This document shows positions 1-33,562 of a stretch of DNA of 33,921 bases, piece after piece. Source of the DNA: an uncultured Lachnospiraceae bacterium (lineage in GTDB: Bacteria; Bacillota; Clostridia; Lachnospirales; Lachnospiraceae); contig CAOKQK010000037.1 of the NCBI GenBank assembly GCA_948470905.1, forward strand, positions 1 through 33,921, read 5' to 3'. Each line of letters begins with the position of its first letter. Positions within the stretch are counted from its first letter, which is position 1. A model generated the notes under the pieces. It did no database searches and had not been told where the DNA came from. It was given only the letters and a program-made list of their open reading frames with translations. The translations under genes and the position numbers were made by a program.

Positions 1-1
1 G

Positions 2-469
2 CTGTCGGAGACCGAGAAGCGGATGGAGACTCTGATGGACGGGAAGCTGTCGGAGTCGGAGAAGCAGATGGAAGCTTTGATGGACAGGAAGCTGTCGGAG
101 ACTGAGAAGCGGATGGAGACTCTGATGGACGGGAAGCTGTCGGAGACCGAAAAGCAGATGGAAGCTTTGATGGACAGGAAGCTGTCGAAGACCGAGAAGC
201 AGATGGAGGCTCTGATGGACAGGAAGCTGTCGGAGACCGAGAAGCGGATGGAGACTCTGATGGACGGGAAGCTGTCGGAGACCGAAAAGCAGATGGAAGC
301 TTTGATGGACAGGAAGCTGTCGAAGACCGAGAAGCAGATGGAGGCTCTGATGGACAGGAAGCTGTCGGAGACCGAGAAGCGGATGGAGACTCTGATGGAT
401 GGGAAGCTGTCGGAGTCGGAGAAGCAGATGGAGGCTCTGATGGACAGGAAGCTGTCGGAGTCAGAGAAT
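2..469 (+). repeat. 45-bp tandem repeat with a 135-bp higher-order unit
   Basis: Ten 45-bp units run from 23 to about 469, and a further partial unit lies at the window edge. They fall into three sequence types (ending EKQ or EKR, with DGK or DRK in the middle). Three units form a 135-bp block, 113-247, whose next copy at 248-382 is identical base for base, which points to a recent duplication. Units at 23-67 and 383-427 differ by one base. The period is a multiple of three, so copy changes keep the reading frame. Confidence 0.95.
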
Positions 470-661
470 CTTGTTTTAGAGGAGTTGGAGCGTACAAGGA
501 ATATATTGGAAAAGCAAATAGATTTGATCCAGAAAAATTTGGATGAATTAAATCGATACTACAGGATTACAAAACTTGAAAATGACAACACGACAATGTT
601 GTTAAGGATGATTGACGACCTGTCAAAGAGAGTTGATGAGTTGGAAAAGAGAACGGCATAA
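2..661 (+). CDS. Coiled-coil repeat protein, 5' end outside window
   Basis: The frame is open from base 2, so the protein starts upstream and only its C-terminal 219 residues are visible. Residues encoded at 23-469 are ten tandem 15-residue units of the type MEALMDRKLSETEKR, with hydrophobic residues at unit positions 1, 4, 5 and 9. A non-repeated helical tail follows, rich in Leu, Glu and Lys (LEELERTRNILEKQIDLIQK and onward) and ending in a heptad-like stretch, DDLSKRVDELEKRTA. A 15-residue period (3.75 residues per turn) is not a heptad; it is known from right-handed coiled coils such as the YadA stalk. The family is not recognised. The tail resembles the short coiled-coil proteins often annotated as hypothetical in Firmicutes. 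No membrane segment or catalytic motif is visible. Function unknown; the role could be structural or a scaffold. Confidence 0.75.
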   Translation: MSETEKRMETLMDGKLSESEKQMEALMDRKLSETEKRMETLMDGKLSETEKQMEALMDRKLSKTEKQMEALMDRKLSETEKRMETLMDGKLSETEKQMEALMDRKLSKTEKQMEALMDRKLSETEKRMETLMDGKLSESEKQMEALMDRKLSESENLVLEELERTRNILEKQIDLIQKNLDELNRYYRITKLENDNTTMLLRMIDDLSKRVDELEKRTA

Positions 662-2538: not shown

Positions 2539-3573
2539 CTATTCTTTTTCCGTAGTTTCCCTGCGGAAAAATACAGGCGGTATCACCTTGTGTATGGGGG
2601 TTTCCAGAGGGATTGATCTGCGTTTTTTGCGTTCATTCATCTGCTCTACAAGAAGGTTTACCGCCTCATAAGCAAGTTTGTCAATCTGCTGCCCCATGGT
2701 GCTGATGGGGAGGACGGCTTCCCTGGAAATGGGGGAATTGTCAAAGCCGATGATCATATAGTCCTCCGGCAGATGCCCGTACTTGCGCATCAGCAGATTC
2801 AGAAGCACATTGGCATGAGTGTCGCTGGACAGAAAAATCCCTTTTTTAAGACCGGAATAAGAGGTGTCCAGATGTTGTAAAATGTCTGAAAGCAGCGGCT
2901 TTGCGGTTTCGTAGGTATTTCCTAATTCTTTTATGATGATCTCGTGATTTATATTATGTTCCTGACAAAAATCAGAGAAAGCTTTGAGTCTGCCATAGGC
3001 GGGGACTTTTTCTGGTGTGGGAGTGTTGATGTGGATCAGGACGTCACAGGCATGTCTGAGCAGAAGGCTTGTGGCCTGATACCCTCCCATATAGTTGTCT
3101 GTGTTGATGCTGCACACATATTCATCTTCTCTTTCAATCGTCACGATCGGAATAGGGAGTTGGGCAAGTTCTGCAGAGGGGATGGTATGGCTTAAAATAA
3201 TCATGCCCTCAATCTTGTAGGCAAGCAGTTCTTTGATGTAGCGTCTTTCTGTCTCCTCTTTTTCATTGCCGATAAACACCAGGAATTTATAGCCGAAAGT
3301 CTCGTAGGTAGAAAGGATCTGATCTAATATTTCCGAATAGAAATGATGATACAAATCGGGTATGATTATGCCCACAAATTCTGTTTTCCCGCTGGCAAGT
3401 ATCCTTGCCACTTTATTTTCTTTATAATTAAGTTTTACAAGGGCATCTGAAATAATCTGCTGGTTTTCCAGGGTGAGGGAGTCGGGATTGTTAAAGTAAC
3501 GGGAAATGGTAGTCTTGGAGAAATTTGTATATTTTGCAATATCGTCAAAAGTTACGTTTTTTTTCCGTGCCAT
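2539..3573 (-). CDS. LacI-family transcriptional regulator
   Basis: A 344-residue sugar-responsive repressor. The N-terminus VTFDDIAKYTNFSKTTISRY (about 7-26) is the LacI-type helix-turn-helix, followed by the hinge region VARILASGKT (about 56-65) and a periplasmic-binding-protein-like effector domain (GIIIPDLYHHFYSEIL onward, with IIGFDNSPIS near 270). The start codon is preceded on the minus strand by AAAGG. The gene lies between the glucosidase gene (convergent) and the ABC/GH operon (divergent). The likely targets are the AACCGGTT operator pairs in its own upstream region, so it probably represses the raffinose/sucrose operon and perhaps itself. The inducer is not readable from sequence; a raffinose-family sugar, melibiose or sucrose is the inference from the neighbours. 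Confidence 0.92.
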   Translation of the reverse strand: MARKKNVTFDDIAKYTNFSKTTISRYFNNPDSLTLENQQIISDALVKLNYKENKVARILASGKTEFVGIIIPDLYHHFYSEILDQILSTYETFGYKFLVFIGNEKEETERRYIKELLAYKIEGMIILSHTIPSAELAQLPIPIVTIEREDEYVCSINTDNYMGGYQATSLLLRHACDVLIHINTPTPEKVPAYGRLKAFSDFCQEHNINHEIIIKELGNTYETAKPLLSDILQHLDTSYSGLKKGIFLSSDTHANVLLNLLMRKYGHLPEDYMIIGFDNSPISREAVLPISTMGQQIDKLAYEAVNLLVEQMNERKKRRSIPLETPIHKVIPPVFFRRETTEKE

Positions 3574-3602: not shown

Positions 3603-3632
3603 AATATATCACAATACAAATAAAGTAAACAA
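3603..3632 (-). promoter_or_regulatory. Putative promoter of the LacI-type gene
   Basis: On the minus strand TTGTTT (3632-3627) and TATATT (3608-3603) are 18 bp apart, about 30 bp before the start codon. The whole region is AT-rich, so other pairs can be drawn. Confidence 0.35.
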
Positions 3633-3644
3633 ATATAATACAAA

Positions 3645-3740
3645 ACAAATAGGGCATAAGACAAATAAAACATAAAACAAATAAGACATAAAACAAATAA
3701 AGCATAAGACAGATAAAGCATAAAACAAATAGAACCTAAA
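3645..3740. repeat. Six direct 16-bp AT-rich repeats upstream of the regulator
   Basis: Six head-to-tail units of ACAAATARRRCATAAR begin at 3645, 3661, 3677, 3693, 3709 and 3725, each exactly 16 bp; the sixth has one extra deviation (CCTAAA) and the array then degenerates. The array sits just upstream of the putative regulator promoter. It is not coding and is too short for CRISPR (no spacers). It could be a curved or UP-like element, or a binding array. Confidence 0.85.
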
Positions 3741-3890
3741 ACGTAAAATAAAATAAGTAAAATTTAGAACACACCCAAATAAAACATATCATTCCAGTTC
3801 TGATATCTCAGATATCAAAGGATAACGCAAATATTGGTGCAGTTATCAACACATACATCATAGCAAAAAACATTTAAAAAGACAAGCGAG

Positions 3891-7386: not shown

Positions 7387-8706
7387 ATGAAAAATATACT
7401 GCATTTAAAGGCACCGGGAAACTGGATCAACGATCCCAATGGATTCATCTATTACCAGGGAAAATATCATTTGTTTTATCAGCATTTTCCCTATGCTCCT
7501 GCCTGGGGCACCATGCACTGGGGACACGCGGTGAGTGAGGATCTGGTGCATTGGGAGCATTTGGGTATTGCGCTGTTCCCCACAAAGGAATACGATAGGA
7601 ACGGGGTTTTTTCAGGGAGCGCCCTGGAGAAAGATGGGCGGCTGTATCTCTACTATTCGGCGGTGCGGTATCTGGAGACAGATAAGGAAGATATCCACAG
7701 GGCGGTCTGCGATCATTATGAGACCAGTCAGGCTATGATCATCTCGGAGGACGGGTTCCATTTTGACAACTGGGGCAGCAAAAGACAGATCATTCCCGTG
7801 AGCCGCAGGGAGGATATGGCAAACGCCACGCATACCAGAGATCCCAAGGTCTGGAGGGAAGACGGAAACTATTATATGGCATTGGGCAGCACCTTTGAAG
7901 AAAAGGCGGGGCGTGTGCTCTTTTACAGGAGCCCGGATGGGGAAAACTGGGAATATGCAGCCCAGTGCAGGCATGAGAAGCTTGGGCGGATCGTGGAGTG
8001 CCCGGATGTGTTCCGGGTGGGAGAGACGGATGTGTTTATGGCATCCCTCATGTATATCGGGGAACCGGGGAAGGGATACGAAAATATGTCGGTCTGCGCA
8101 CCGGCGGAATTTGACAGGCAGAGCTGTGAGCTGACACTTCCCGAAAAATTTCAGTATGTGGACTATGGGATGGACATGTACGCCCCCCAGACGAACCTGG
8201 ACAGGGAGGGAAGGCGTGTGATGGTGGCATGGATGCGGATGCCAAGAACCGTGGAAGACGGCGGGACGCCCTGGAACGGGATGATGTGCCTCCCCAGGGT
8301 GGTGGAAACCGAAAAAGGTCATATTTTCTTCCGGGTACATCCGGAGGTGGACAGATATTTTTCCGAGGAACAGGAAGAAAGGGAGAGCCTTTTGGGAGAG
8401 GGTCCCTGGAGGATACGGACAGTACTGGAAGAAGGAGAAGAACTGGACATCGGGGGATACCGCATCCGGATGGAACGGGGATATGTAAAGACGGACAGAA
8501 GCAGGGTGTTTGAGGGGATAGAAGGAGTTGCGTTCACCAGCAGCACGCCGGAGCGCCTGGAGCGGTGCAGTCTGGATATCTTTGTGGATCTCAATCTGAT
8601 AGAAGTGTTTATCAATGAGGGAGAATATGTGATCAGCAATGTGGTCTATGACCTGGGGAGAAAGGCTGCAGGGAAAATCGGGCATATTTATACAGGCGGG
8701 CAATGA
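7387..8706 (+). CDS. GH32 beta-fructofuranosidase (sucrose/raffinose invertase)
   Basis: A 439-residue cytoplasmic enzyme that removes beta-linked fructose from sucrose or raffinose-family sugars. Visible family motifs are WINDPNG with nucleophile Asp16, the RDP motif (Arg151-Asp152, transition-state stabiliser) and VECPD with acid/base Glu204; they lie in the five-bladed propeller. The C-terminal beta-sandwich is recognised by the stretch around residue 400, SLDIFVDLNLIEVFINEG. There is no signal peptide, so the substrate must be imported first. The length is slightly shorter than the usual 470-500 residues. The start follows CAGGAG. Its product fructose is the substrate for the fructokinase gene of the same operon. 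Whether raffinose or sucrose is preferred cannot be told from sequence. Confidence 0.93.
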   Translation: MKNILHLKAPGNWINDPNGFIYYQGKYHLFYQHFPYAPAWGTMHWGHAVSEDLVHWEHLGIALFPTKEYDRNGVFSGSALEKDGRLYLYYSAVRYLETDKEDIHRAVCDHYETSQAMIISEDGFHFDNWGSKRQIIPVSRREDMANATHTRDPKVWREDGNYYMALGSTFEEKAGRVLFYRSPDGENWEYAAQCRHEKLGRIVECPDVFRVGETDVFMASLMYIGEPGKGYENMSVCAPAEFDRQSCELTLPEKFQYVDYGMDMYAPQTNLDREGRRVMVAWMRMPRTVEDGGTPWNGMMCLPRVVETEKGHIFFRVHPEVDRYFSEEQEERESLLGEGPWRIRTVLEEGEELDIGGYRIRMERGYVKTDRSRVFEGIEGVAFTSSTPERLERCSLDIFVDLNLIEVFINEGEYVISNVVYDLGRKAAGKIGHIYTGGQ

Positions 8707-8819
8707 ACAACAAGTCCAAGGAGCCATTCCTACGAAAGGTTCACATCAATGGGAGCTTGGCTAATGTCGCAGGAGAGCTTTGCTCCTTGCAGTTCACACG
8801 ACGGAAAAGGAGAGCGGAA

Positions 8820-16626: not shown

Positions 16627-16755
16627 AAATGCAGGCAGTTCCTACAGTTTATTCCCGCGGGCAATGAGTCATAAGTCCGAGAAGTTTACTTCTCTGGGAC
16701 CTTGACGAATGCCGCGAAGGTCAAAAACCCCATCAGCTTGCTGCGGGGTTTTTGA
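16627..16755 (+). ncRNA. Structured RNA element, copy 1 (upstream of pfkA)
   Basis: An unidentified RNA shared with 18228-18310. Outer stem: CGCGGGCA (16656-16663) with TGCCGCG (16710-16716). Second stem: AAGTCC (16673-16678) with GGGACCTT (16696-16703). Apical hairpin: GAGAAG, loop TTTA, CTTCTC (16679-16694). Unpaired ATGAGT and GACGAA are identical in both copies. Copy 1 ends in a perfect terminator hairpin, so with the promoter at 16591 it looks like a free-standing RNA of about 130 nt. It does not match the SRP RNA, 6S, T-box or common riboswitch consensus sequences known to me. Confidence 0.55.
16721..16755 (+). terminator. Intrinsic terminator closing structured RNA copy 1
   Basis: TCAAAAACCCC (16721-16731) pairs perfectly with GGGGTTTTTGA (16745-16755), with an inner CAGC/GCTG. 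The T-run is part of the 3' arm. No such hairpin follows copy 2. Confidence 0.75.
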
Positions 16756-16783
16756 TAATGTAGGGACTGCTTTATGCAATGAA

Positions 16784-17037
16784 AAATGTTTGAAAACATT
16801 TGAATTTACTGCATTTGCGCCCATTCCTTGATATAATGGAAGTGCAGAAAAAATGCTTGTTTTATGAATAAACCTGCGCGCCTCAGAACACAAGCTATCC
16901 CCAGGATGTCAATCCCCTGAACGAAGTCCGTGAGAACCTTAAAGGAATGATTGACGAACTTTGATACGAATACGGTTGCGAAAGAATGAATAAACTCCCA
17001 TGCAATAGTTGCAAAATGATCTTGAAAAGGGTAAAAT
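16784..17037 (+). promoter_or_regulatory. pfkA upstream region: dyad and two putative promoters
   Basis: A dyad AAATGTTT-GA-AAACATTT (16784-16801) lies upstream of an extended-10 element TGATATAAT (16829-16837). A second, better promoter is TTGCAA (17009-17014), 17 bp, TAAAAT (17032-17037), about 100 bp before pfkA. Between them, 16882-16965 can be read as an open tail ending NPLNEVRENLKGMIDEL and a stop; it has no usable start and looks like a gene remnant. Confidence 0.45.
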
Positions 17038-17141
17038 TTATTGTAACCATATTAAAGGAGATGGTCGGTTATGCTGCTGCCTGTATTTGGCGCAGGCAGA
17101 TTCGGCAGGCTATCATGGCAGAATGACAGGAGGACGTGAAC

Positions 17142-18215
17142 ATGAAAAGAATCGGTATGTTGACCAGCGGAGGGGATTGCCAGGCATTGAATGCGGCGAT
17201 GAGAGGTGTTGTCAAGACTTTGGATCACAGTAAGGAGAAAGTTGAGATCTATGGTTTCCTTGACGGATACAAAGGATTGATCTACAGCAAGTTTCAGATG
17301 CTGACAGGGCGGGATTTTTCAGGTATATTGACAAAGGGCGGCACTATTTTGGGAACCTCCCGAACCCCTTTCAAGACGATCCAAGATCCTGATGAGAATG
17401 GATTGAATAAGGTAGACGCAATGAAGCAGAATTATTATAAGCTTCAGCTGGACTGCCTGGTCATCCTGGGAGGCAACGGTACGCACAAGACCGCTAACCT
17501 GCTCCGGCAGCAGGGGCTGAACATTGTTACCCTGCCCAAGACCATTGACAATGATCTGTGGGGGACAGATATGACTTTCGGTTTCCAGAGCGCGGTGAAC
17601 ATTGCCACAGATGCCATCGACTGTATCCACACTACCGCATCTTCACACGGAAGGGTGTTTATTGTGGAGGTAATGGGGCATAAGGTGGGCTGGCTGACCT
17701 TGAACGCCGGCATGGCAGGCGGCGCTGATATCATCCTGCTGCCGGAGATTCCCTACGATATTGACAAGGTGGTGGACAAGATAGAGGAGAGGGACAAGCG
17801 CGGCAGCCGCTTTACGATCATTGCGGTGGCGGAAGGCGCGATCTCCAAGGAGGACGCGGCGCTCTCCAAGAAGGAGTACAAGAAGAAGCTGGAGAAGCGG
17901 GCATTGTCTTCCGTTTCTTACGAGCTTGCGGCGGAGATTCAAAAAAAGACCGGCCGGGAAGTCCGTGTCACAGTTCCCGGGCATATGCAGCGCGGCGGCA
18001 GTCCCTGCCCCTATGACCGTGTGTTTGCCAGCCGTCTGGGAGCGGAGGCAGGCAGGCTGATCCTGGACAATCAATACGGCTTTATGGTGGGCTATAAGAA
18101 CCGTGAGATTGTCAAGGTGCCCCTGGAGGATGTGGCTGGCAAGCTCAAGATGGTGGAGCCGGATTCTACGATCGTGCAGGAGGCGAAGCTGCTGGGCATT
18201 TCCTTTGGGGACTGA
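17142..18215 (+). CDS. pfkA: 6-phosphofructokinase (group III-like)
   Basis: A 357-residue glycolytic kinase converting fructose-6-phosphate to fructose-1,6-bisphosphate. Seen: MLTSGGDCQALNAAMRG at the N-terminus, GGTILGTSR, GGNGTHKTA (Asn112-Gly113), PKTIDND with catalytic Asp136, VEVMGHKVGWL and GHMQRGGSP. The Gly at position 113 is the residue associated with ATP rather than pyrophosphate use, while PKTIDND with Lys is common in pyrophosphate- and group III enzymes. Two positions are unusual: Asn112 replaces the Asp of GGDG, and MGH replaces MGR. The start at 17142 has AGGAGG eight bases upstream; a GTG two codons earlier is less likely. The donor therefore needs testing. It is followed seven bases later by structured RNA copy 2. 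Confidence 0.88.
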   Translation: MKRIGMLTSGGDCQALNAAMRGVVKTLDHSKEKVEIYGFLDGYKGLIYSKFQMLTGRDFSGILTKGGTILGTSRTPFKTIQDPDENGLNKVDAMKQNYYKLQLDCLVILGGNGTHKTANLLRQQGLNIVTLPKTIDNDLWGTDMTFGFQSAVNIATDAIDCIHTTASSHGRVFIVEVMGHKVGWLTLNAGMAGGADIILLPEIPYDIDKVVDKIEERDKRGSRFTIIAVAEGAISKEDAALSKKEYKKKLEKRALSSVSYELAAEIQKKTGREVRVTVPGHMQRGGSPCPYDRVFASRLGAEAGRLILDNQYGFMVGYKNREIVKVPLEDVAGKLKMVEPDSTIVQEAKLLGISFGD

Positions 18216-18227
18216 TGCCGATATTTA

Positions 18228-18310
18228 TTCCCGTGGGCAATGAGTTACAAGTCCCAGGAAGTAAACTTCCTGAAAGCTTGCGTTTCCGGGACTTTGACGA
18301 ATGCCGCGAG
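18228..18310 (+). ncRNA. Structured RNA element, copy 2 (dnaX leader)
   Basis: Same fold as 16651-16718. Outer stem CGTGGGCA (18232-18239) with TGCCGCG (18302-18308); second stem AAGTCCC (18249-18255) with GGGACTT (18288-18294), perfect; hairpin AGGAAG-TAAA-CTTCCT (18256-18271). It has an extra small hairpin (GAAA 18272-18275 with TTTC 18283-18286) absent from copy 1. Base changes between copies keep the pairing: GAGAAG/CTTCTC versus AGGAAG/CTTCCT. It lies 58 bp before the dnaX start, so here it would be a 5' leader. A weak hairpin AGTC-TTT-GACT follows at about 18325-18335. Confidence 0.55.
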
Positions 18311-18367
18311 GGTGAAAAATCAAAAGTCTTTGACTGCCTGCGGGGATAAATCCAGAAAGGGGATCAT

Positions 18368-19954
18368 ATGTCATACACAGCATTATACCGGAAATTCCGT
18401 CCGGACACCTTTGCATCTGTAAAAGGACAGGATCATATAGTTACTACTTTGAAGAATCAGTTAAAGGCGAACCGGATCGGCCATGCTTATCTCTTTACTG
18501 GGACCCGCGGAACAGGCAAGACGACCATTGCAAAGATATTTGCCCGCACGGTAAACTGTGAAAATCCTACGGAGGACGGACCCTGCGGGCAGTGCCGCAG
18601 CTGCCGCGCCATTGCGGCAGGAGCGAGCATGAACGTCATTGAGATAGATGCCGCCTCCAACAACGGTGTGGACAATATCCGCGAGATCGTGGAGGAGGTT
18701 TCCTATTCTCCGGCGGAGGGAAAATACAAGGTTTATATCATAGATGAGGTGCATATGCTTTCCATAGGAGCCTTTAACGCGCTGCTTAAGACTCTGGAGG
18801 AGCCGCCGTCCTATGTGATCTTTATCCTTGCAACCACGGAGGTGCATAAGCTTCCGGTCACGATCCTGTCCCGGTGTCAGCGGTATGATTTCAGGAGGAT
18901 TTCCATTGATACCATTGCCGGAAGGCTGCAGGAGCTGGTCATGGCGGAGAATGTTCAGGTGGAGGACAGGGCACTGCGCTATATTGCGAAGACAGCGGAC
19001 GGTTCTATGCGTGATGCCCTGAGTCTTCTGGATCAGTGTATTGCATTTCATCTGGGAAAGGAACTCACCTACGAGAAGGTTCTGGACGTACTTGGAGCTG
19101 TGGACACGGAGGTGTTCAGCCGTCTGCTGCGCTGTATCCTGGAGCAGGAGGTGCTGGGCTGTATTAAGCTTTTGGAAGAAATTGTCATGCAGGGAAGGGA
19201 GCTTACTCAGTTTGTGACGGATTTCGCCTGGTATCTGCGCAATCTGATGCTGGTACAGGCGTCGGATGACCTGGAGGATGTCATCGACATGTCCGCAGAT
19301 AATTTAAAGAGGCTGAAAGAGGAGTCAGAACAGGTGGACATGGAGCAAAATGTCCGTTATATCAGGATTTTTTCGGAGCTGTCCAACCAGATACGCTATG
19401 CGGCACAGAAAAGAATCCTGGTGGAAATAGCGCTGATCAAGCTTTGCAAACCGCAGATGGAAGTGAGCCAGGATGCGGTGCTCGACCGCATCCGTCAGAT
19501 GGAGGATAAGCTGGACAATGTAAAAGTGGTCCCGGCATCAGAGATGACAGGGCTGCCCGCAGCGGGAGCAGGGACATTTCAGGAGGAACCGCCAAAGGTA
19601 CAGATGCCCAAGGCAATCCCTGAGGACGTGAGGTACATTGTGTCAAAATGGCCATCCATCGTGGGCAGTGCGGAGAATCCCATGCGTACTTATATCAAAG
19701 ACGCGAAATTAAGCCTTGGAGATGACAGCAGGCTGATGGTGGTGCTGGAGGACGGCATTGCTTCGGATTATTTTATCCAGGATCCTGATCACAAGACACA
19801 GTTGGAGAGGCTTTTATCGGACTTTGCATGCAAGGAGATCGAGGTCAGTATCCAGGTCATGAAAGAGAACCAGGATTTTGCACAGAGCTTTGTGGATCTG
19901 TCGAAGCTGGTGCAGATGGATATAGAGATAGAGGAAGAAGACGAAACGGAATAA
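18368..19954 (+). CDS. dnaX: DNA polymerase III subunit gamma/tau
   Basis: A 528-residue clamp-loader ATPase. Walker A is GTRGTGKT (45-52), the zinc site is Cys64, Cys73, Cys76 and Cys79, Walker B is IIDEVH (Asp126-Glu127), and the sensor/arginine-finger motif ILSRCQRYDF follows near 165-175. The AAA+ lid and the collar domain are present (to about 370); a variable linker with Pro and a C-terminal domain of about 120 residues follow. This is the long tau-type product; no obvious poly-A slippage site for a shorter gamma form stands out. The start follows AAAGGGGATCAT. It heads the conserved dnaX-ybaB-recR cluster. The usual SRP RNA gene upstream of dnaX in Bacillus is not present; the structured RNA occupies that spot. 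Confidence 0.97.
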   Translation: MSYTALYRKFRPDTFASVKGQDHIVTTLKNQLKANRIGHAYLFTGTRGTGKTTIAKIFARTVNCENPTEDGPCGQCRSCRAIAAGASMNVIEIDAASNNGVDNIREIVEEVSYSPAEGKYKVYIIDEVHMLSIGAFNALLKTLEEPPSYVIFILATTEVHKLPVTILSRCQRYDFRRISIDTIAGRLQELVMAENVQVEDRALRYIAKTADGSMRDALSLLDQCIAFHLGKELTYEKVLDVLGAVDTEVFSRLLRCILEQEVLGCIKLLEEIVMQGRELTQFVTDFAWYLRNLMLVQASDDLEDVIDMSADNLKRLKEESEQVDMEQNVRYIRIFSELSNQIRYAAQKRILVEIALIKLCKPQMEVSQDAVLDRIRQMEDKLDNVKVVPASEMTGLPAAGAGTFQEEPPKVQMPKAIPEDVRYIVSKWPSIVGSAENPMRTYIKDAKLSLGDDSRLMVVLEDGIASDYFIQDPDHKTQLERLLSDFACKEIEVSIQVMKENQDFAQSFVDLSKLVQMDIEIEEEDETE

Positions 19955-21107: not shown

Positions 21108-21263
21108 AGGAGCTGTCAAGAAATAACTTTTAATTTGACGTAGGATAAATCCGCATAGGCAAGGAGGAAGAAGGAGGCGTACCGGGGTACGCTGACTGAT
21201 GACGACGCAGTCCTATGTGGATTTAGACAAGTCAAATTGAAAGATTATTTCTTGACAGCTCCT
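21108..21263. mobile_element. 156-bp palindromic element, MITE-like
   Basis: Termini are perfect 19-bp inverted repeats: AGGAGCTGTCAAGAAATAA at 21108-21126 and its complement at 21245-21263. Inner blocks also pair: AATTTGAC (21132-21139) with GTCAAATT (21231-21238), and TAAATCCGCATAGG (21146-21159) with CCTATGTGGATTTA (21212-21225, one G-T). A central palindrome is GCGTACC-GG-GGTACGC (21177-21192). TA flanks the arms (21106-21107 and 21263-21264), so a TA target duplication is possible but weak. No transposase is encoded. It could also be transcribed as a long hairpin RNA. It reaches to 18 bp before the MutS-like start. Confidence 0.65.
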
Positions 21264-23157: not shown

Positions 23158-24867
23158 ATGATATGGTTTGATTTACTGTATCCAAGCGAGGAAAAATGGG
23201 AACAGGGAAAAGCGGGTGGGAAGGTGAGTTCGTCCCTGGTGCATGACCTGCAGCTGGAAAGAATGGTGGAGGAGCATGTCCTGGACAGGGAAGAATTTGC
23301 GGGGCTCTGCCAGGAGCTGGAGCATCTTCCTGTGGACAGAGAGGTGATCCTGTTCCGGCAGGAAGTGCTTCAGGATCTCATACATAACCCTCACTTCCTG
23401 GACAAGTGCAGCGATTTCTGCAAAAGGCTGAAAAACAATGCCCCGACTAAAAGGGATATATACAATCCGTCTGATCCTGTCTATAAAAACCTGGAGGAGC
23501 ATATTGGCGTCCTGGAGGCAAACTACCATGCCCTGTGTACGGCAAACCTGGGGGCGGATACGAAATTCCGGTCGGACGCCCTGGTACAGCTGGCGTATTT
23601 TATGGAAAATAATGAATATAAAGACCGGCTTCGGGAGATTATCGGGCTGCTGAAAGAGATATTGGAGGCAGGGGCGGTCAGATACCTGCCCGAATATACC
23701 TATGGACAGGTTATGGAGTCTGTGGTGATACAGGGACTTTCCAGGGAAAATACATATGTGATGAAGGAAAAGGGGCTCTTGAAGAAGACGGTGGTTGACA
23801 GGGATTATCTGATCCCGGCGGACAACATTATCCTGAGCAACAATATGGAGGAGATTTATTCCAAGACCATTGTCAGGCTATGCGACTTTGCGTCCAGATT
23901 GAACAGTACGATCGTAGGCGCCTTCCGGAGGATACAGAAGGAGATCCCTTATTATCGCGCGGGAATCCGTCTCTATGAAATGTATTGCGGGCGGGAGCTT
24001 TCGCCATGCCTGCCGCAGGTAGAGGAGGGATGCGGGGCGGGCATGGAATTTACGAATCTGTATCCGATTCACCTGCTGGCAAGGAAACCGGTCAGGGAGA
24101 TACAGAGTAATTCTTATTCTAATAAAGAGGGAAGGATCGCCATTATCACAGGGCATAACAGCGGCGGAAAGACGACCTTCCTGCAGGCGGCAGGGACAGC
24201 GCAGATCATGATGCAGCTTGGCTTTTTTGTCCCGGCGGACTTTTATAAGGCGTCTGCCGCCCCGTTTATCTGCAGCCTGTATGCTGGCAGTGAAGACGCG
24301 GATACGATCTATGGCAAGCTGGAGCAGGAGCTGGTGGAGATCCGTGCTGCGTCTGGGATGATTAAGGAGGGCAGCCTTTTGCTGATGAACGAGATTTTTG
24401 CCACAACCTCTGAGAGAGAGGGCGCCGACATTGCGGCGGAGGTTCTGCATGCTTTTTCCCACACCTATTCCCATATGATATTTGTGACCCATTTAAAATG
24501 TCTGGCGGATATGGCGGAAGCTGGGAAGCTGACCCTGGCGGACGGGGAGCGGGCGGTGAATTATGTGACAGAGCGGGTTGCTGGTGCGGAGAGGACGGAA
24601 GGACCGGGACAGGTTCAAGGTGCGGAGAGGACGGAAGGACCGGAACAGGTTCAAGGTGTGGAGAGGACGGAAGGGTCGGGACAGGTTCAAGGTGTGGAAC
24701 AGGCGGAAGGGACTGATGGGGGCAGCGAAAAGGTCAAAAAGACCTACCGTATTGTGAGGGGGCATCCTGAGGCAGGAATATTTGAAAGAGAATTGTTTGA
24801 TAAGTATTTTGGGACGGCGCTTGGGAGCACATGGACGGATAATGGCATAACGGACGGCGGACATTGA
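23158..24867 (+). CDS. MutS-family ATPase 2 (domain V type), with repeat insert
   Basis: A 569-residue paralogue of the preceding ATPase. Walker A: TGHNSGGKTTF (Lys338). Walker B: LLLMNEIFATTSEREG with Glu412, again Asn in place of the usual Asp. FVTHLKCL follows, like the MutS His motif. Residues about 476-520 are a 12-residue tandem repeat (GAERTEGPGQVQ) inserted between the ATPase core and the C-terminal strand TYRIVRGHPEAGIFERELFDKY, which continues the family fold. The helical N-terminal half lacks a mismatch-binding domain. The start at 23158 has AGGAGG eight bases upstream. A strong terminator lies just after the stop. Co-transcription and heterodimer formation with ATPase 1 are inferred from adjacency. 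Confidence 0.87.
   Translation: MIWFDLLYPSEEKWEQGKAGGKVSSSLVHDLQLERMVEEHVLDREEFAGLCQELEHLPVDREVILFRQEVLQDLIHNPHFLDKCSDFCKRLKNNAPTKRDIYNPSDPVYKNLEEHIGVLEANYHALCTANLGADTKFRSDALVQLAYFMENNEYKDRLREIIGLLKEILEAGAVRYLPEYTYGQVMESVVIQGLSRENTYVMKEKGLLKKTVVDRDYLIPADNIILSNNMEEIYSKTIVRLCDFASRLNSTIVGAFRRIQKEIPYYRAGIRLYEMYCGRELSPCLPQVEEGCGAGMEFTNLYPIHLLARKPVREIQSNSYSNKEGRIAIITGHNSGGKTTFLQAAGTAQIMMQLGFFVPADFYKASAAPFICSLYAGSEDADTIYGKLEQELVEIRAASGMIKEGSLLLMNEIFATTSEREGADIAAEVLHAFSHTYSHMIFVTHLKCLADMAEAGKLTLADGERAVNYVTERVAGAERTEGPGQVQGAERTEGPEQVQGVERTEGSGQVQGVEQAEGTDGGSEKVKKTYRIVRGHPEAGIFERELFDKYFGTALGSTWTDNGITDGGH
24583..24717 (+). repeat. 36-bp minisatellite inside MutS-like gene 2
   Basis: Units begin at 24583, 24619 and 24655, with a partial fourth at 24691. 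Each encodes a variant of GAERTEGPGQVQ. Units differ by a few bases, and 36 is a multiple of three, so copy changes keep the frame. The sequence is hydrophilic and probably an unstructured linker. Confidence 0.93.
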
Positions 24868-25337: not shown

Positions 25338-25418
25338 AGGTGCCGTGTACCGAACGGTATGCACGGTGCTGTGAGAGGTTGGAAATTTCTCTGTCAGAGA
25401 AATTTCCTCCTACTCGAT
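25338..25418 (+). mobile_element. Group II intron domains V and VI, 3' end of a truncated intron
   Basis: Domain V is visible as GTGCCGTG, TACC-GAAC-GGTA, a two-base TG bulge and CACGGTGC (25341-25368), followed by GTGAGAGG. Domain VI is GGAAATTTCT (25381-25390) with AGAAATTTCC (25398-25407). The typical intron end CCTACTCGAT lies at 25409-25418. Together with 25026-25337 this is a 5'-truncated copy; no domain I is seen upstream. 25419-25545 holds a small hairpin CTTTG-TGGGAA-CAAAG and nothing else recognisable. Confidence 0.75.
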
Positions 25419-29089: not shown

Positions 29090-30256
29090 ATGCAGGAAAA
29101 GGCCAGTGTACCGGCTATCCGGTTCGCCGGTTTCACGGATGATTGGGAACAGCGGAAGTTGGGAGAGGTGATAAAAGCTGAACCTTTCAAGCAATATCTG
29201 AAAGAACCCGAAATTGATGGGAAATATGAAGTTGTACAGCAGGGTGATACTCCTATTCTCGGTTATGCAAATGGAAATCCATTTCAAGACTATGGAAATG
29301 TTGTGTTGTTTGGAGATCACACATTGTCACTTTTCAAACCCGAAATGCCTTTTTTTGTTGCAACTGATGGGATTCGCATTGTTTCAAGTATAAAAAAGAT
29401 GGACAGAGATTATTTACATTGTCTTCTTGAACGGTACAAGCCAAAATCCGAGGGATATAAGAGATATTACTCTATTTTGACCGATTGCGGTTGCACTCTA
29501 ACCAATGGTATCAGTGAACAGCGGCAAATCGGCACATTCTTCCGCCACCTCGTCCACCTTATCACCCTTCATCAGCGTAAGTTTTCACGCTTGTACAACA
29601 TCAAGAAATCCATGCTGGAGCGGATGTTTCCCCGCGAGGGTGCTACTGTTCCCGAAATCCGGTTTGCGGGATTTACTGACGCTTGGGAACAGCGTAAGTT
29701 GGGGGACTTTGCTGATTTTTACAACGGGGACAGAAGTTCAAGGTATCCAAAGGACAGCGAATTGGTTACTGAGGGTGTACCGTTCATAAACGCTGGCGAT
29801 TTGGTGAACGGCAGGGTAAAACTAGACACAGCAAATAGGATAACAAAAGCAAAATATGAGGAATTGTCTGGAGCAAAGATTAGACTTGGAGATATAATCT
29901 ATTGCCTGCGAGGAACCCTTGGAAAGAACGCATTTGTCGATAATTTTGACTTTGGAACGGTAGCTTCATCACTTGTAGATATAAGACCGAAAGATATTGA
30001 CGGGAAATATCTTTTTCATGTCCTGAACTCAGATATAGAATATAGGCAAAGAGTGGTTCATGATGAAGGTGCTGCACAGCCAAATTTATCTGCGAAGAAC
30101 CTTTCTGAGTTTACAATTCCGGTGCCAGATAAGCAAGAACAAGAGCGGATTGCTTCGTTCCTTGACGACCTCGACCACCTCATCACCCTTCATCAGCGTG
30201 AGTTGGAACGGCTGCAAAACATCAAGAAATCCTGCCTTGAAAAAATGTTCGTTTGA
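29090..30256 (+). CDS. hsdS: Type I restriction-modification specificity subunit
   Basis: A 388-residue DNA-recognition subunit with two target-recognition domains, each opening with VPxIRFAGFTDxWEQRKLG (7-25 and 187-205). TRD1 spans about 26-143 and TRD2 about 206-345. The two conserved helical spacers are near-copies: EQRQIGTFFRHLVHLITLHQRKF (143-165) and EQERIASFLDDLDHLITLHQREL (about 343-365), each ending in NIKKSxLExMF. The two recognition domains are unrelated, so a bipartite asymmetric target is expected. Starts at 29090 behind GGGGGGTG, just after hsdM. A stretch of 25 bp at 29682-29706 recurs exactly downstream of hsdR. Confidence 0.94.
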   Translation: MQEKASVPAIRFAGFTDDWEQRKLGEVIKAEPFKQYLKEPEIDGKYEVVQQGDTPILGYANGNPFQDYGNVVLFGDHTLSLFKPEMPFFVATDGIRIVSSIKKMDRDYLHCLLERYKPKSEGYKRYYSILTDCGCTLTNGISEQRQIGTFFRHLVHLITLHQRKFSRLYNIKKSMLERMFPREGATVPEIRFAGFTDAWEQRKLGDFADFYNGDRSSRYPKDSELVTEGVPFINAGDLVNGRVKLDTANRITKAKYEELSGAKIRLGDIIYCLRGTLGKNAFVDNFDFGTVASSLVDIRPKDIDGKYLFHVLNSDIEYRQRVVHDEGAAQPNLSAKNLSEFTIPVPDKQEQERIASFLDDLDHLITLHQRELERLQNIKKSCLEKMFV

Positions 30257-33504: not shown

Positions 33505-33562
33505 CTTGGGAACAGCGTAAGTTGGGGGAAATCGGGAAGTGTCAGTCTGGAGTTGGGTTTTC
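33505..33562 (+). pseudogene. hsdS: Truncated silent hsdS fragment
   Basis: From 33507 the frame reads WEQRKLGEIGKCQSGVGF, the conserved opening of an HsdS half-domain followed by the first residues of a recognition domain different from both in the active gene. It has no start codon and loses resemblance within about 20 codons. The first 25 bases (33505-33529) are identical to 29682-29706 in hsdS. It looks like a residual or donor cassette. Confidence 0.65.

What the first reader, a model, noticed from the sequence alone, without database searches (positions are those of the whole stretch)
16651..18310. Two copies of an unidentified structured RNA, upstream of pfkA and in the dnaX leader
16651-16718 and 18225-18310 share primary sequence in the loops (ATGAGT, GACGAATGCCGCG) and have a common three-stem fold. 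Differences preserve pairing: hairpin GAGAAG/CTTCTC versus AGGAAG/CTTCCT, and C-G versus U-G in the outer stem. Copy 1 has a promoter and terminator of its own; copy 2 is a 5' leader without a terminator. Conserved loops with changing stems are the mark of a selected RNA such as a riboswitch, a protein-binding leader or an sRNA. I cannot match it to a class that I know.
Basis: partly seen in the sequence, partly recalled or inferred. Interest (0 to 1): 0.72.

Follow-up and report, generated by a model that had tools for sequence, protein, structure and literature searches.

The report
Mobile hairpin repeat, not regulatory RNA
The two look-alike hairpins are copies of a short jumping DNA element without a gene of its own, of which this gut bacterium carries about 120 copies or remnants; it inserts just after the letters TTTATT, and the enzyme that moves it is not yet identified.

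Summary
The two structures are real, but they are not a private pair of regulatory RNAs. The left end occurs 121 times in the 3.7 Mb genome, and a third, decayed copy lies at window 8688-8776. A model of the hairpin hits 81 of 200 genomes of the family, patchily. The element has sharp ends, random flanks and no site-specific target duplication (2-6, 8 and 9 nt tested). Two copies sit inside another repeat whose uninterrupted copies give the empty site ...GATTTATT|CTTCGTC..., so it inserts 3' of a pre-existing TTTATT. Copy 2 is absent from the pfkA-dnaX gap in 28 of 28 relatives read, so it is no dnaX leader. Pairing is kept between lineages, but G-U and A-C departures are equally common (43:38 and 20:20), as expected of decaying DNA hairpins. 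Best reading: a new REP/IS200-like non-autonomous palindromic element, probably moved as single-stranded DNA. Strand bias supports this in some sets but not in two genomes. Y1 transposases show neither shared ends (53 loci) nor significant co-occurrence; the mobiliser is unknown.

The parts
16648..16653 (+). TTTATT: target sequence 3' of which copy 1 is inserted
   Evidence: Empty sites in a host repeat show TTTATT present before insertion; TTTATT precedes 43 of 61 places found through the inner motif alone
16654..16757 (+). Copy 1 of the mobile hairpin element (CCCGCGGG...TTTTTGATA; the last letter of the usual GATT is changed)
   Evidence: CM R1 16651-16721, 65.4 bits; nhmmer 16649-16756; ends defined by 56 copies
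16654..16720 (+). Left hairpin of copy 1: CCC/GGG (one pair lost, C facing A), GCG/CGC, GCA/TGC, internal loop ATGA/GAA, GTCA/TGAC, variable apical hairpin
16721..16755 (+). Right hairpin of copy 1, TCAAAAACCCC...GGGGTTTTTGA, terminator-like on both strands
   Evidence: DNA z -5.2; a right end was recognised in 45 of 58 sequence-distinct inner-motif copies with a loose pattern
18224..18229 (+). TTTATT target of copy 2
18230..18351 (+). Copy 2 of the element, between pfkA stop and dnaX start; its right end GCCTGCGGGGATAAAT is nearly the inverse of its left end
   Evidence: CM R1 18227-18313, 61.7 bits; ends pair in the fold; absent from the same gap in 28 of 28 relatives read
8688..8776 (+). 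Third, decayed copy
   Evidence: nhmmer 29.3 bits; CM R1 18 bits, E 0.0017
21108..21263 (-). Host repeat ('MITE-2', my name), other copies of which are the empty and occupied sites; this copy is empty (GGATTTATCC on the minus strand, about 21143-21152)
17136..18215 (+). pfkA (phosphofructokinase), not part of the element
   Evidence: Pfam PFK E 3.3e-107
18368..19954 (+). dnaX, not part of the element
   Evidence: Pfam DNA_pol3_delta2 and others

Best explanation
It is a non-autonomous mobile DNA element, 65-250 bp in the copies with both ends and most often about 125 bp, made of a left imperfect hairpin, optional middle modules and a right hairpin ending in TTTGATT. Shown: it is dispersed (121 left ends), and it inserts exactly 3' of a pre-existing TTTATT without a site-specific target duplication. 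Shown: the hairpin pairing and its unpaired letters (ATGA/GAA, GA bulge) are kept across the family while the apical stem changes. Inferred: the hairpin is recognised as single-stranded DNA by a trans-acting HUH-type (Y1-like) nuclease that cuts after TTTATT at the left and after GATT at the right, and pastes the element after a new TTTATT, preferably on the lagging-strand template. Inferred: inserted copies have no RNA role of their own, though the right hairpin may end transcription from either side. The mobilising gene is not identified.
For: 121 left ends, reversed-pattern control 0; 63 inner motifs, control 0. Sharp boundaries and random flanks in 56 copies; no excess of identical flanks over shuffled pairs for 2-6, 8 or 9 nt. 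Empty sites: L355 (C49) reads GCCTTGCCTGCGCGGATTTATTCTTCGTCATCTGCACAAG; the copy on C22 has the element exactly between TTTATT and CTTCGTCA, and its joined flanks match L355 at 98.6% over 74 nt. A second occupied copy (C4, 90% over 50 nt) and a second empty copy (L362, C1) agree; L357 (C58) looks like a deletion scar. Absent from the pfkA-dnaX gap in 28 of 28 relatives read. Patchy spread: 81 of 200 family genomes. Covariation: 51 double-changed cells against 19.2 shuffled (0 of 500), slid versions at most 16. Strand bias towards the G-rich strand: 49 of 67 own copies and 40 of 47 in public loci, 18 of 21 in G203, although intergenic TTTATT is commoner on the other strand (63 against 104; 85 against 122). 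Palindromic copies L312 and L323 resemble REPINs.
Against: No strand bias in G201 (11 of 20) or G135 (9 of 24); the bias rests on local G-C skew, not a mapped origin, and copies run with both neighbours more often than against both in public loci (18 against 9). Y1_Tnp genes do not co-occur significantly (14 of 19 rich genomes against 102 of 181; 5 rich genomes have none; p 0.22), and none of the 53 Y1 loci held carries the hairpin. No master copy with a gene between the ends was found in held DNA. Both junctions carry ATT (TTTATT, GATT), so a fixed ATT duplication cannot be excluded. The clean empty sites all come from one host repeat; a second host (L250) is diverged. In one search the outer stem has no double change, and the number of pairs with double changes (6) equals shuffles (6.1); RNAalifold's own covariation term was only -0.2. 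As single-stranded DNA the two strands of copy 1 fold equally well, and copy 2 folds little better than shuffles (11 and 30 of 200 as good). The conserved letters are overstated to some degree, because copies were picked with patterns holding them (up to 5 mismatches per arm).
Confidence: 0.62

Rival explanations
1. It is a selected RNA (riboswitch, protein-binding leader or sRNA).
For: Stable fold, covariation, conserved ATGA/GAA internal loop resembling tandem G-A motifs (resemblance recalled, not tested), a promoter-like site upstream of copy 1.
Against: 121 dispersed left ends, empty sites, no widely recurrent neighbour gene, absent before dnaX in 28 of 28 relatives read, G-U about equal to A-C, no Rfam match.
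Confidence: 0.05
2. It is a classical MITE moved by a DDE transposase with a fixed 3-bp ATT target duplication.
For: ATT stands at both junctions; some copies (L312, L323, window copy 2) have inverted ends.
Against: The usual ends TTTATTCCCGC and GGGGTTTTTGATT are not inverse copies; no duplication that varies with the site; hairpins with strand-specific bulges are not needed by a DDE enzyme (recalled); strand bias in several sets.
Confidence: 0.14
3. It spreads through an RNA copy (group II intron-like or retron-like), inserting at the lagging-strand template.
For: Strand bias; structured unit with terminator-like 3' end; no site-specific duplication; a group II intron fragment lies in the window.
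Against: Ends CCCGCG and GATT are not intron ends (recalled); G-U does not exceed A-C clearly; the left end is nearly always present (56 of 58 distinct inner-motif copies), unlike 5' truncation by target-primed copying.
Confidence: 0.06
4. The repeats are kept because they serve the host, as two-way terminators or mRNA stabilisers, and spread is secondary.
For: Strong right hairpin with facing A and T runs; mostly intergenic (58 of 72 by simple ORF calls).
Against: Patchy presence (81 of 200 genomes); copies without a recognised right end; neighbour orientations near balance in the own genome (19, 19, 18 and 13), though less so in public loci.
Confidence: 0.13

Closest known systems
REP / REPIN / BIME sequences with RAYT (TnpA-REP)
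   Same: Short extragenic hairpins with a bulge, a conserved short motif at the 5' foot, high copy number, inverted doublets, a non-autonomous way of life (PMC6006769 abstract and passages, PMC3116915 passages)
   Different: Foot motif is TTTATT, not GT[AG]G; longer and modular with a separate right hairpin; no RAYT found linked to it
Non-autonomous derivatives of IS200/IS605 elements (name 'PATE' recalled)
   Same: Insertion 3' of a short fixed target without visible duplication; hairpins at both ends; strand bias in some sets
   Different: No Y1 element with these ends found (0 of 53 loci held); the left hairpin starts directly at the cut, not some bases inside
BOX elements of Streptococcus pneumoniae (recalled)
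   Same: Modular structured repeat with fixed ends and variable middle modules
   Different: Different host group; not compared by sequence here
MITEs
   Same: Gene-free, intergenic, many copies
   Different: The usual copies lack terminal inverted repeats and a site-specific target duplication

Membership tests
REP sequences | GTAG or GTGG tetranucleotide 0-2 nt 5' of the hairpin (PMC6006769, passage) | tested here: not met
   The six letters before the hairpin are TTTATT in 43 of 61 places and no listed variant is GTAG or GTGG
REP sequences | Extragenic, high copy number | tested here: met
   121 left ends; 58 of 72 intergenic by simple ORF calls
REP sequences | Imperfect hairpin with a bulge between stems | tested here: met
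   Bulged R, GA bulge, ATGA/GAA loop
REP sequences | RAYT gene linked to the repeats | tested here: not met
   No hairpin in the 53 Y1_Tnp loci held, about 1.5 kb each side; co-occurrence p 0.22. Many further Y1 matches were not examined.
IS200/IS605 non-autonomous derivative | Insertion 3' of a fixed short target, no target duplication | tested here: met
   Empty and occupied sites; the ATT ambiguity remains
IS200/IS605 non-autonomous derivative | Ends shared with an autonomous Y1 element | tested here: not met
   0 of 23 loci and 0 of 53 loci
IS200/IS605 non-autonomous derivative | Insertion into the lagging-strand template | tested here: inconclusive
   Bias in own genome, public loci and G203, none in G201 and G135; the G-rich strand was used as proxy
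MITE (DDE type) | Terminal inverted repeats | tested here: not met
   Usual ends are not inverse copies; a few palindromic exceptions
MITE (DDE type) | Target-site duplication | tested here: inconclusive
   None that varies with the site for 2-6, 8 or 9 nt; a constant ATT cannot be told apart
Known RNA family (Rfam 15) | Match to a covariance model | tested here: not met
   No match to the element at gathering score; only unrelated chance-level matches at E up to 10

The most novel reading that the evidence does not exclude
A large, undescribed class of hairpin transposons in Lachnospiraceae-type gut bacteria is moved as single-stranded DNA by an enzyme that is not a Y1 transposase, that is, by an unknown mobilising nuclease or a domesticated host protein encoded away from the repeats.
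Probability: 0.22. Interest if true: 0.8.

Novelty: new variant of a known kind. Interest (0 to 1): 0.5.

Why it matters
Some gut bacteria carry dozens to more than a hundred copies of this repeat, yet no name for it turned up: no Rfam match, no paper holding three of its 15-16-letter stretches, none found by topic searches. It can mislead searches for riboswitches and sRNAs, because it is structured, covarying and next to genes. It is also a marker of genome plasticity and a handle for finding the enzyme that moves REP-like DNA in Firmicutes.

Tried and rejected
Rfam at gathering score and at E up to 10: no class matches the element. dnaX leader idea: against it, 28 of 28 relatives read; these are the 29 relative loci among the best 30 dnaX matches of 61 genomes, less one without pfkA in the stretch. 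Y1 partner: no shared ends in the loci held and no significant co-occurrence (the copy counts are capped at 26 and typed). Master copy with a gene between the ends: 5 candidate left-right spacings (one a repeat of another), with ORFs that look unrelated by eye. Neighbour gene families: top 25 clusters seen, none in more than 5 genomes. Phage and plasmid collections: no match; one viral contig carries a complete-looking element just after a tRNA-like 3' end (L414). Strand bias first looked general and was then not found in G201 and G135. Published names: searches gave no description. Rows dropped: 52 of 110 left-end copies had no recognised right end within 300 nt and 2 more lacked full flanks, leaving 56. 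In one search, the 61 left flanks are the inner-motif places with a left arm. One search counts 58 inner-motif copies, because copies identical around the motif are counted once there. In one search only copies with both arms count (67 own, 47 public), against 72 left ends (51 of 72 on the G-rich strand).

Full report
What is there. Copies 1 and 2 are at the stated places, fold better than shuffled sequence as RNA and share the loops. A pattern taken from both gave 28 exact matches in the window's own genome. The right arm of the left hairpin occurs 63 times with up to 3 mismatches. The left end occurs 121 times, 60 forward and 61 reverse, with 0 matches for the reversed control. A third, decayed copy lies at 8688-8776. 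So the finding is a dispersed repeat. Some of the 121 are remnants.

Anatomy. In the 56 copies with both ends and full flanks, the commonest length from TTTATT to GATT is 125 bp (12 of 56; range 65-250, with the search ending at 300): TTTATT, then CCCGCGGGCA-ATGA-GTCA..., a variable apical hairpin...TTGAC-GAA-TGCCGC-GA-GGG, and a right hairpin TCAAAAACCCC...GGGGTTTTTGATT. Some copies have extra middle modules, some lack most of the apical hairpin, and a few are near-perfect palindromes (L312, L323). Among 58 sequence-distinct inner-motif copies, a left end was recognised in 56 and a right end in 45 with a loose pattern; three of the 58 lie close to an end of their stretch. In other genomes the left hairpin has the same unpaired letters (ATGA in 62 of 64, GAA in 55 of 64, GA bulge in 59 of 64) with quite different apical stems. 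These copies were picked with patterns that hold those letters, allowing up to 5 mismatches per arm, so the figures are upper bounds.

Pairing is kept between lineages. On 40 aligned copies the named structure has 51 double-changed cells against 19.2 in shuffles (0 of 500 as high) and at most 16 when slid, and a covariation score of 0.183 against 0.089 shuffled and at most 0.086 slid. Against this: the number of pairs with a double change (6) is no higher than shuffled (6.1); five of those six are in the apical stem, one in the second stem and none in the outer stem; RNAalifold alone gives a covariation term of only -0.2. G-U and A-C departures are about equal: 43 and 38 in 83 own copies, 20 and 20 in 64 others. 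Selection for RNA pairing on one strand should favour G-U. The near-equality fits copies that drift after insertion. As single-stranded DNA, copy 1 folds better than shuffles on both strands alike (z -2.8 and -2.9), while copy 2 hardly does (11 and 30 of 200 shuffles as good).

Insertion. In 56 copies, composition is near random up to TTTATT on the left and after GATT on the right, and identical flanks of 2-6, 8 or 9 nt do not exceed shuffled pairs. Two copies (on C22 and C4) lie inside another palindromic repeat that is also in the window (21108-21263). Uninterrupted copies of that repeat on C49 and C1 read ...GGATTTATTCTTCGTCATCTGCAC... and ...AGATTTATTCTTCGTCTTCTATAC...; other uninterrupted copies, the window's included, read GGATTTATCC. 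The occupied copies have the element between TTTATT and CTTCGTCA. The joined flanks of the C22 copy match the C49 empty site at 98.6% over 74 nt, those of the C4 copy at 90% over 50 nt. A copy on C58 (L357) looks like a deletion scar. When copies are found through the inner motif, without using the left flank, TTTATT still precedes 43 of 61. Because both ends finish in ATT, a constant ATT duplication cannot be told from none.

Not a leader. dnaX was found in all 61 genomes of the genus searched, and loci were given for the best 30. Of the 29 that are not the own genome, 28 have pfkA directly before dnaX in the stretch, and none of these has the element between them. Among 603 ORFs within 1.5 kb of 179 copies from 37 genomes, the most recurrent family is in 5 genomes and looks by eye like an ABC transporter.

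Spread. A covariance model of the left hairpin finds 81 of 200 genomes of the family at E up to 0.001, own genome included, with 1 to at least 26 copies (26 is the number scored per genome). At order level it finds 13 of 246 at E up to 0.0001; 7 are in the own family, and the 6 from other families have one or two matches each at about 40 bits or less. The strict left-end pattern is found in 25 of 99 genomes, all of the own genus (own included), and in 0 of 38 genomes of other families. Records with both arms include Acetatifactor muris (L215), Parablautia intestinalis (L173) and an assembly named Blautia (L199). Some hits are not the element: L160, L207 and L230 share what looks like coding sequence.

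How it may move. Insertion 3' of a fixed target, no visible duplication, and hairpins with strand-specific bulges are the marks of single-stranded DNA transposition by HUH enzymes, which target the lagging-strand template (PMC6006769, abstract and passages read). Taking the G-rich strand as a proxy, copies lie on it in 49 of 67 own cases (29 of 40 regions) and in 40 of 47 public loci. This is so although intergenic TTTATT is commoner on the other strand (63 against 104 own, 85 against 122 public; counting coding DNA too, 312 against 272 and 329 against 343). It holds between convergent or divergent genes (19:7 and 10:3). But of three further genomes with 20 or more copies only G203 shows it (18 of 21); G201 (11 of 20) and G135 (9 of 24) do not. 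I therefore count it as support, not proof.

Who moves it. PF01797 (Y1_Tnp) is in 21 of 61 genomes of the genus and 116 of 200 of the family. Genomes with at least 10 element copies have it in 14 of 19 cases against 102 of 181 others (p 0.22), and 5 rich genomes have none. No Y1 locus held carries the hairpin (0 of 53, about 1.5 kb each side; many more Y1 matches were not looked at). The one Y1 gene found in the own genome has an in-frame stop and other ends. The mobiliser is open.

Comparison. It works like REP/REPIN sequences and IS200-derived repeats but fails the REP foot motif and the link to a known Y1 element. I file it as a new variant of that kind. No published description was found in the searches named; of the papers listed there only passages of PMC6006769 and PMC3116915 were read, and papers outside that library were not seen.

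Noticed in passing
window 21108-21263: A second palindromic repeat (52-nt arms, 77% complementary) with four further full-length copies at 92-99% identity and many partial ones in the genome; relatives of it host two element insertions.
   Followed up: partly
L367-L370, L373 and further contigs (query 54-106): A segment of about 53 nt of that repeat recurs at about 79% identity on many contigs, apparently within another repeat.
   Followed up: no
window 1-585: 45-bp direct tandem repeats.
   Followed up: no
window 3611-3754: A-rich tandem repeat with a 16-bp period.
   Followed up: no
window 24571-24710: Three direct repeats with a 36-bp period.
   Followed up: no
window 25338-25418: Rfam group II intron match (43 bits, cut-off 40).
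   Followed up: no
window 29102-30249 and 33505-33529: Imperfect direct repeats of 65-113 bp, with a 25-bp stretch of 29682-29706 recurring exactly at 33505.
   Followed up: no
L257, gap between pfkA and dnaX: Relative G005 has a different hairpin-rich sequence in the same gap, perhaps another repeat family (by eye).
   Followed up: no
L129 about 1353-2150: IS200-like element with an in-frame stop whose right end TCTTGACTT resembles the tail of the studied repeat; a short CCCGCGGGGGGATTGACT stretch follows it (by eye).
   Followed up: partly
L414 about 3103-3120: A viral contig carries a complete-looking copy directly after a tRNA-like 3' end.
   Followed up: partly
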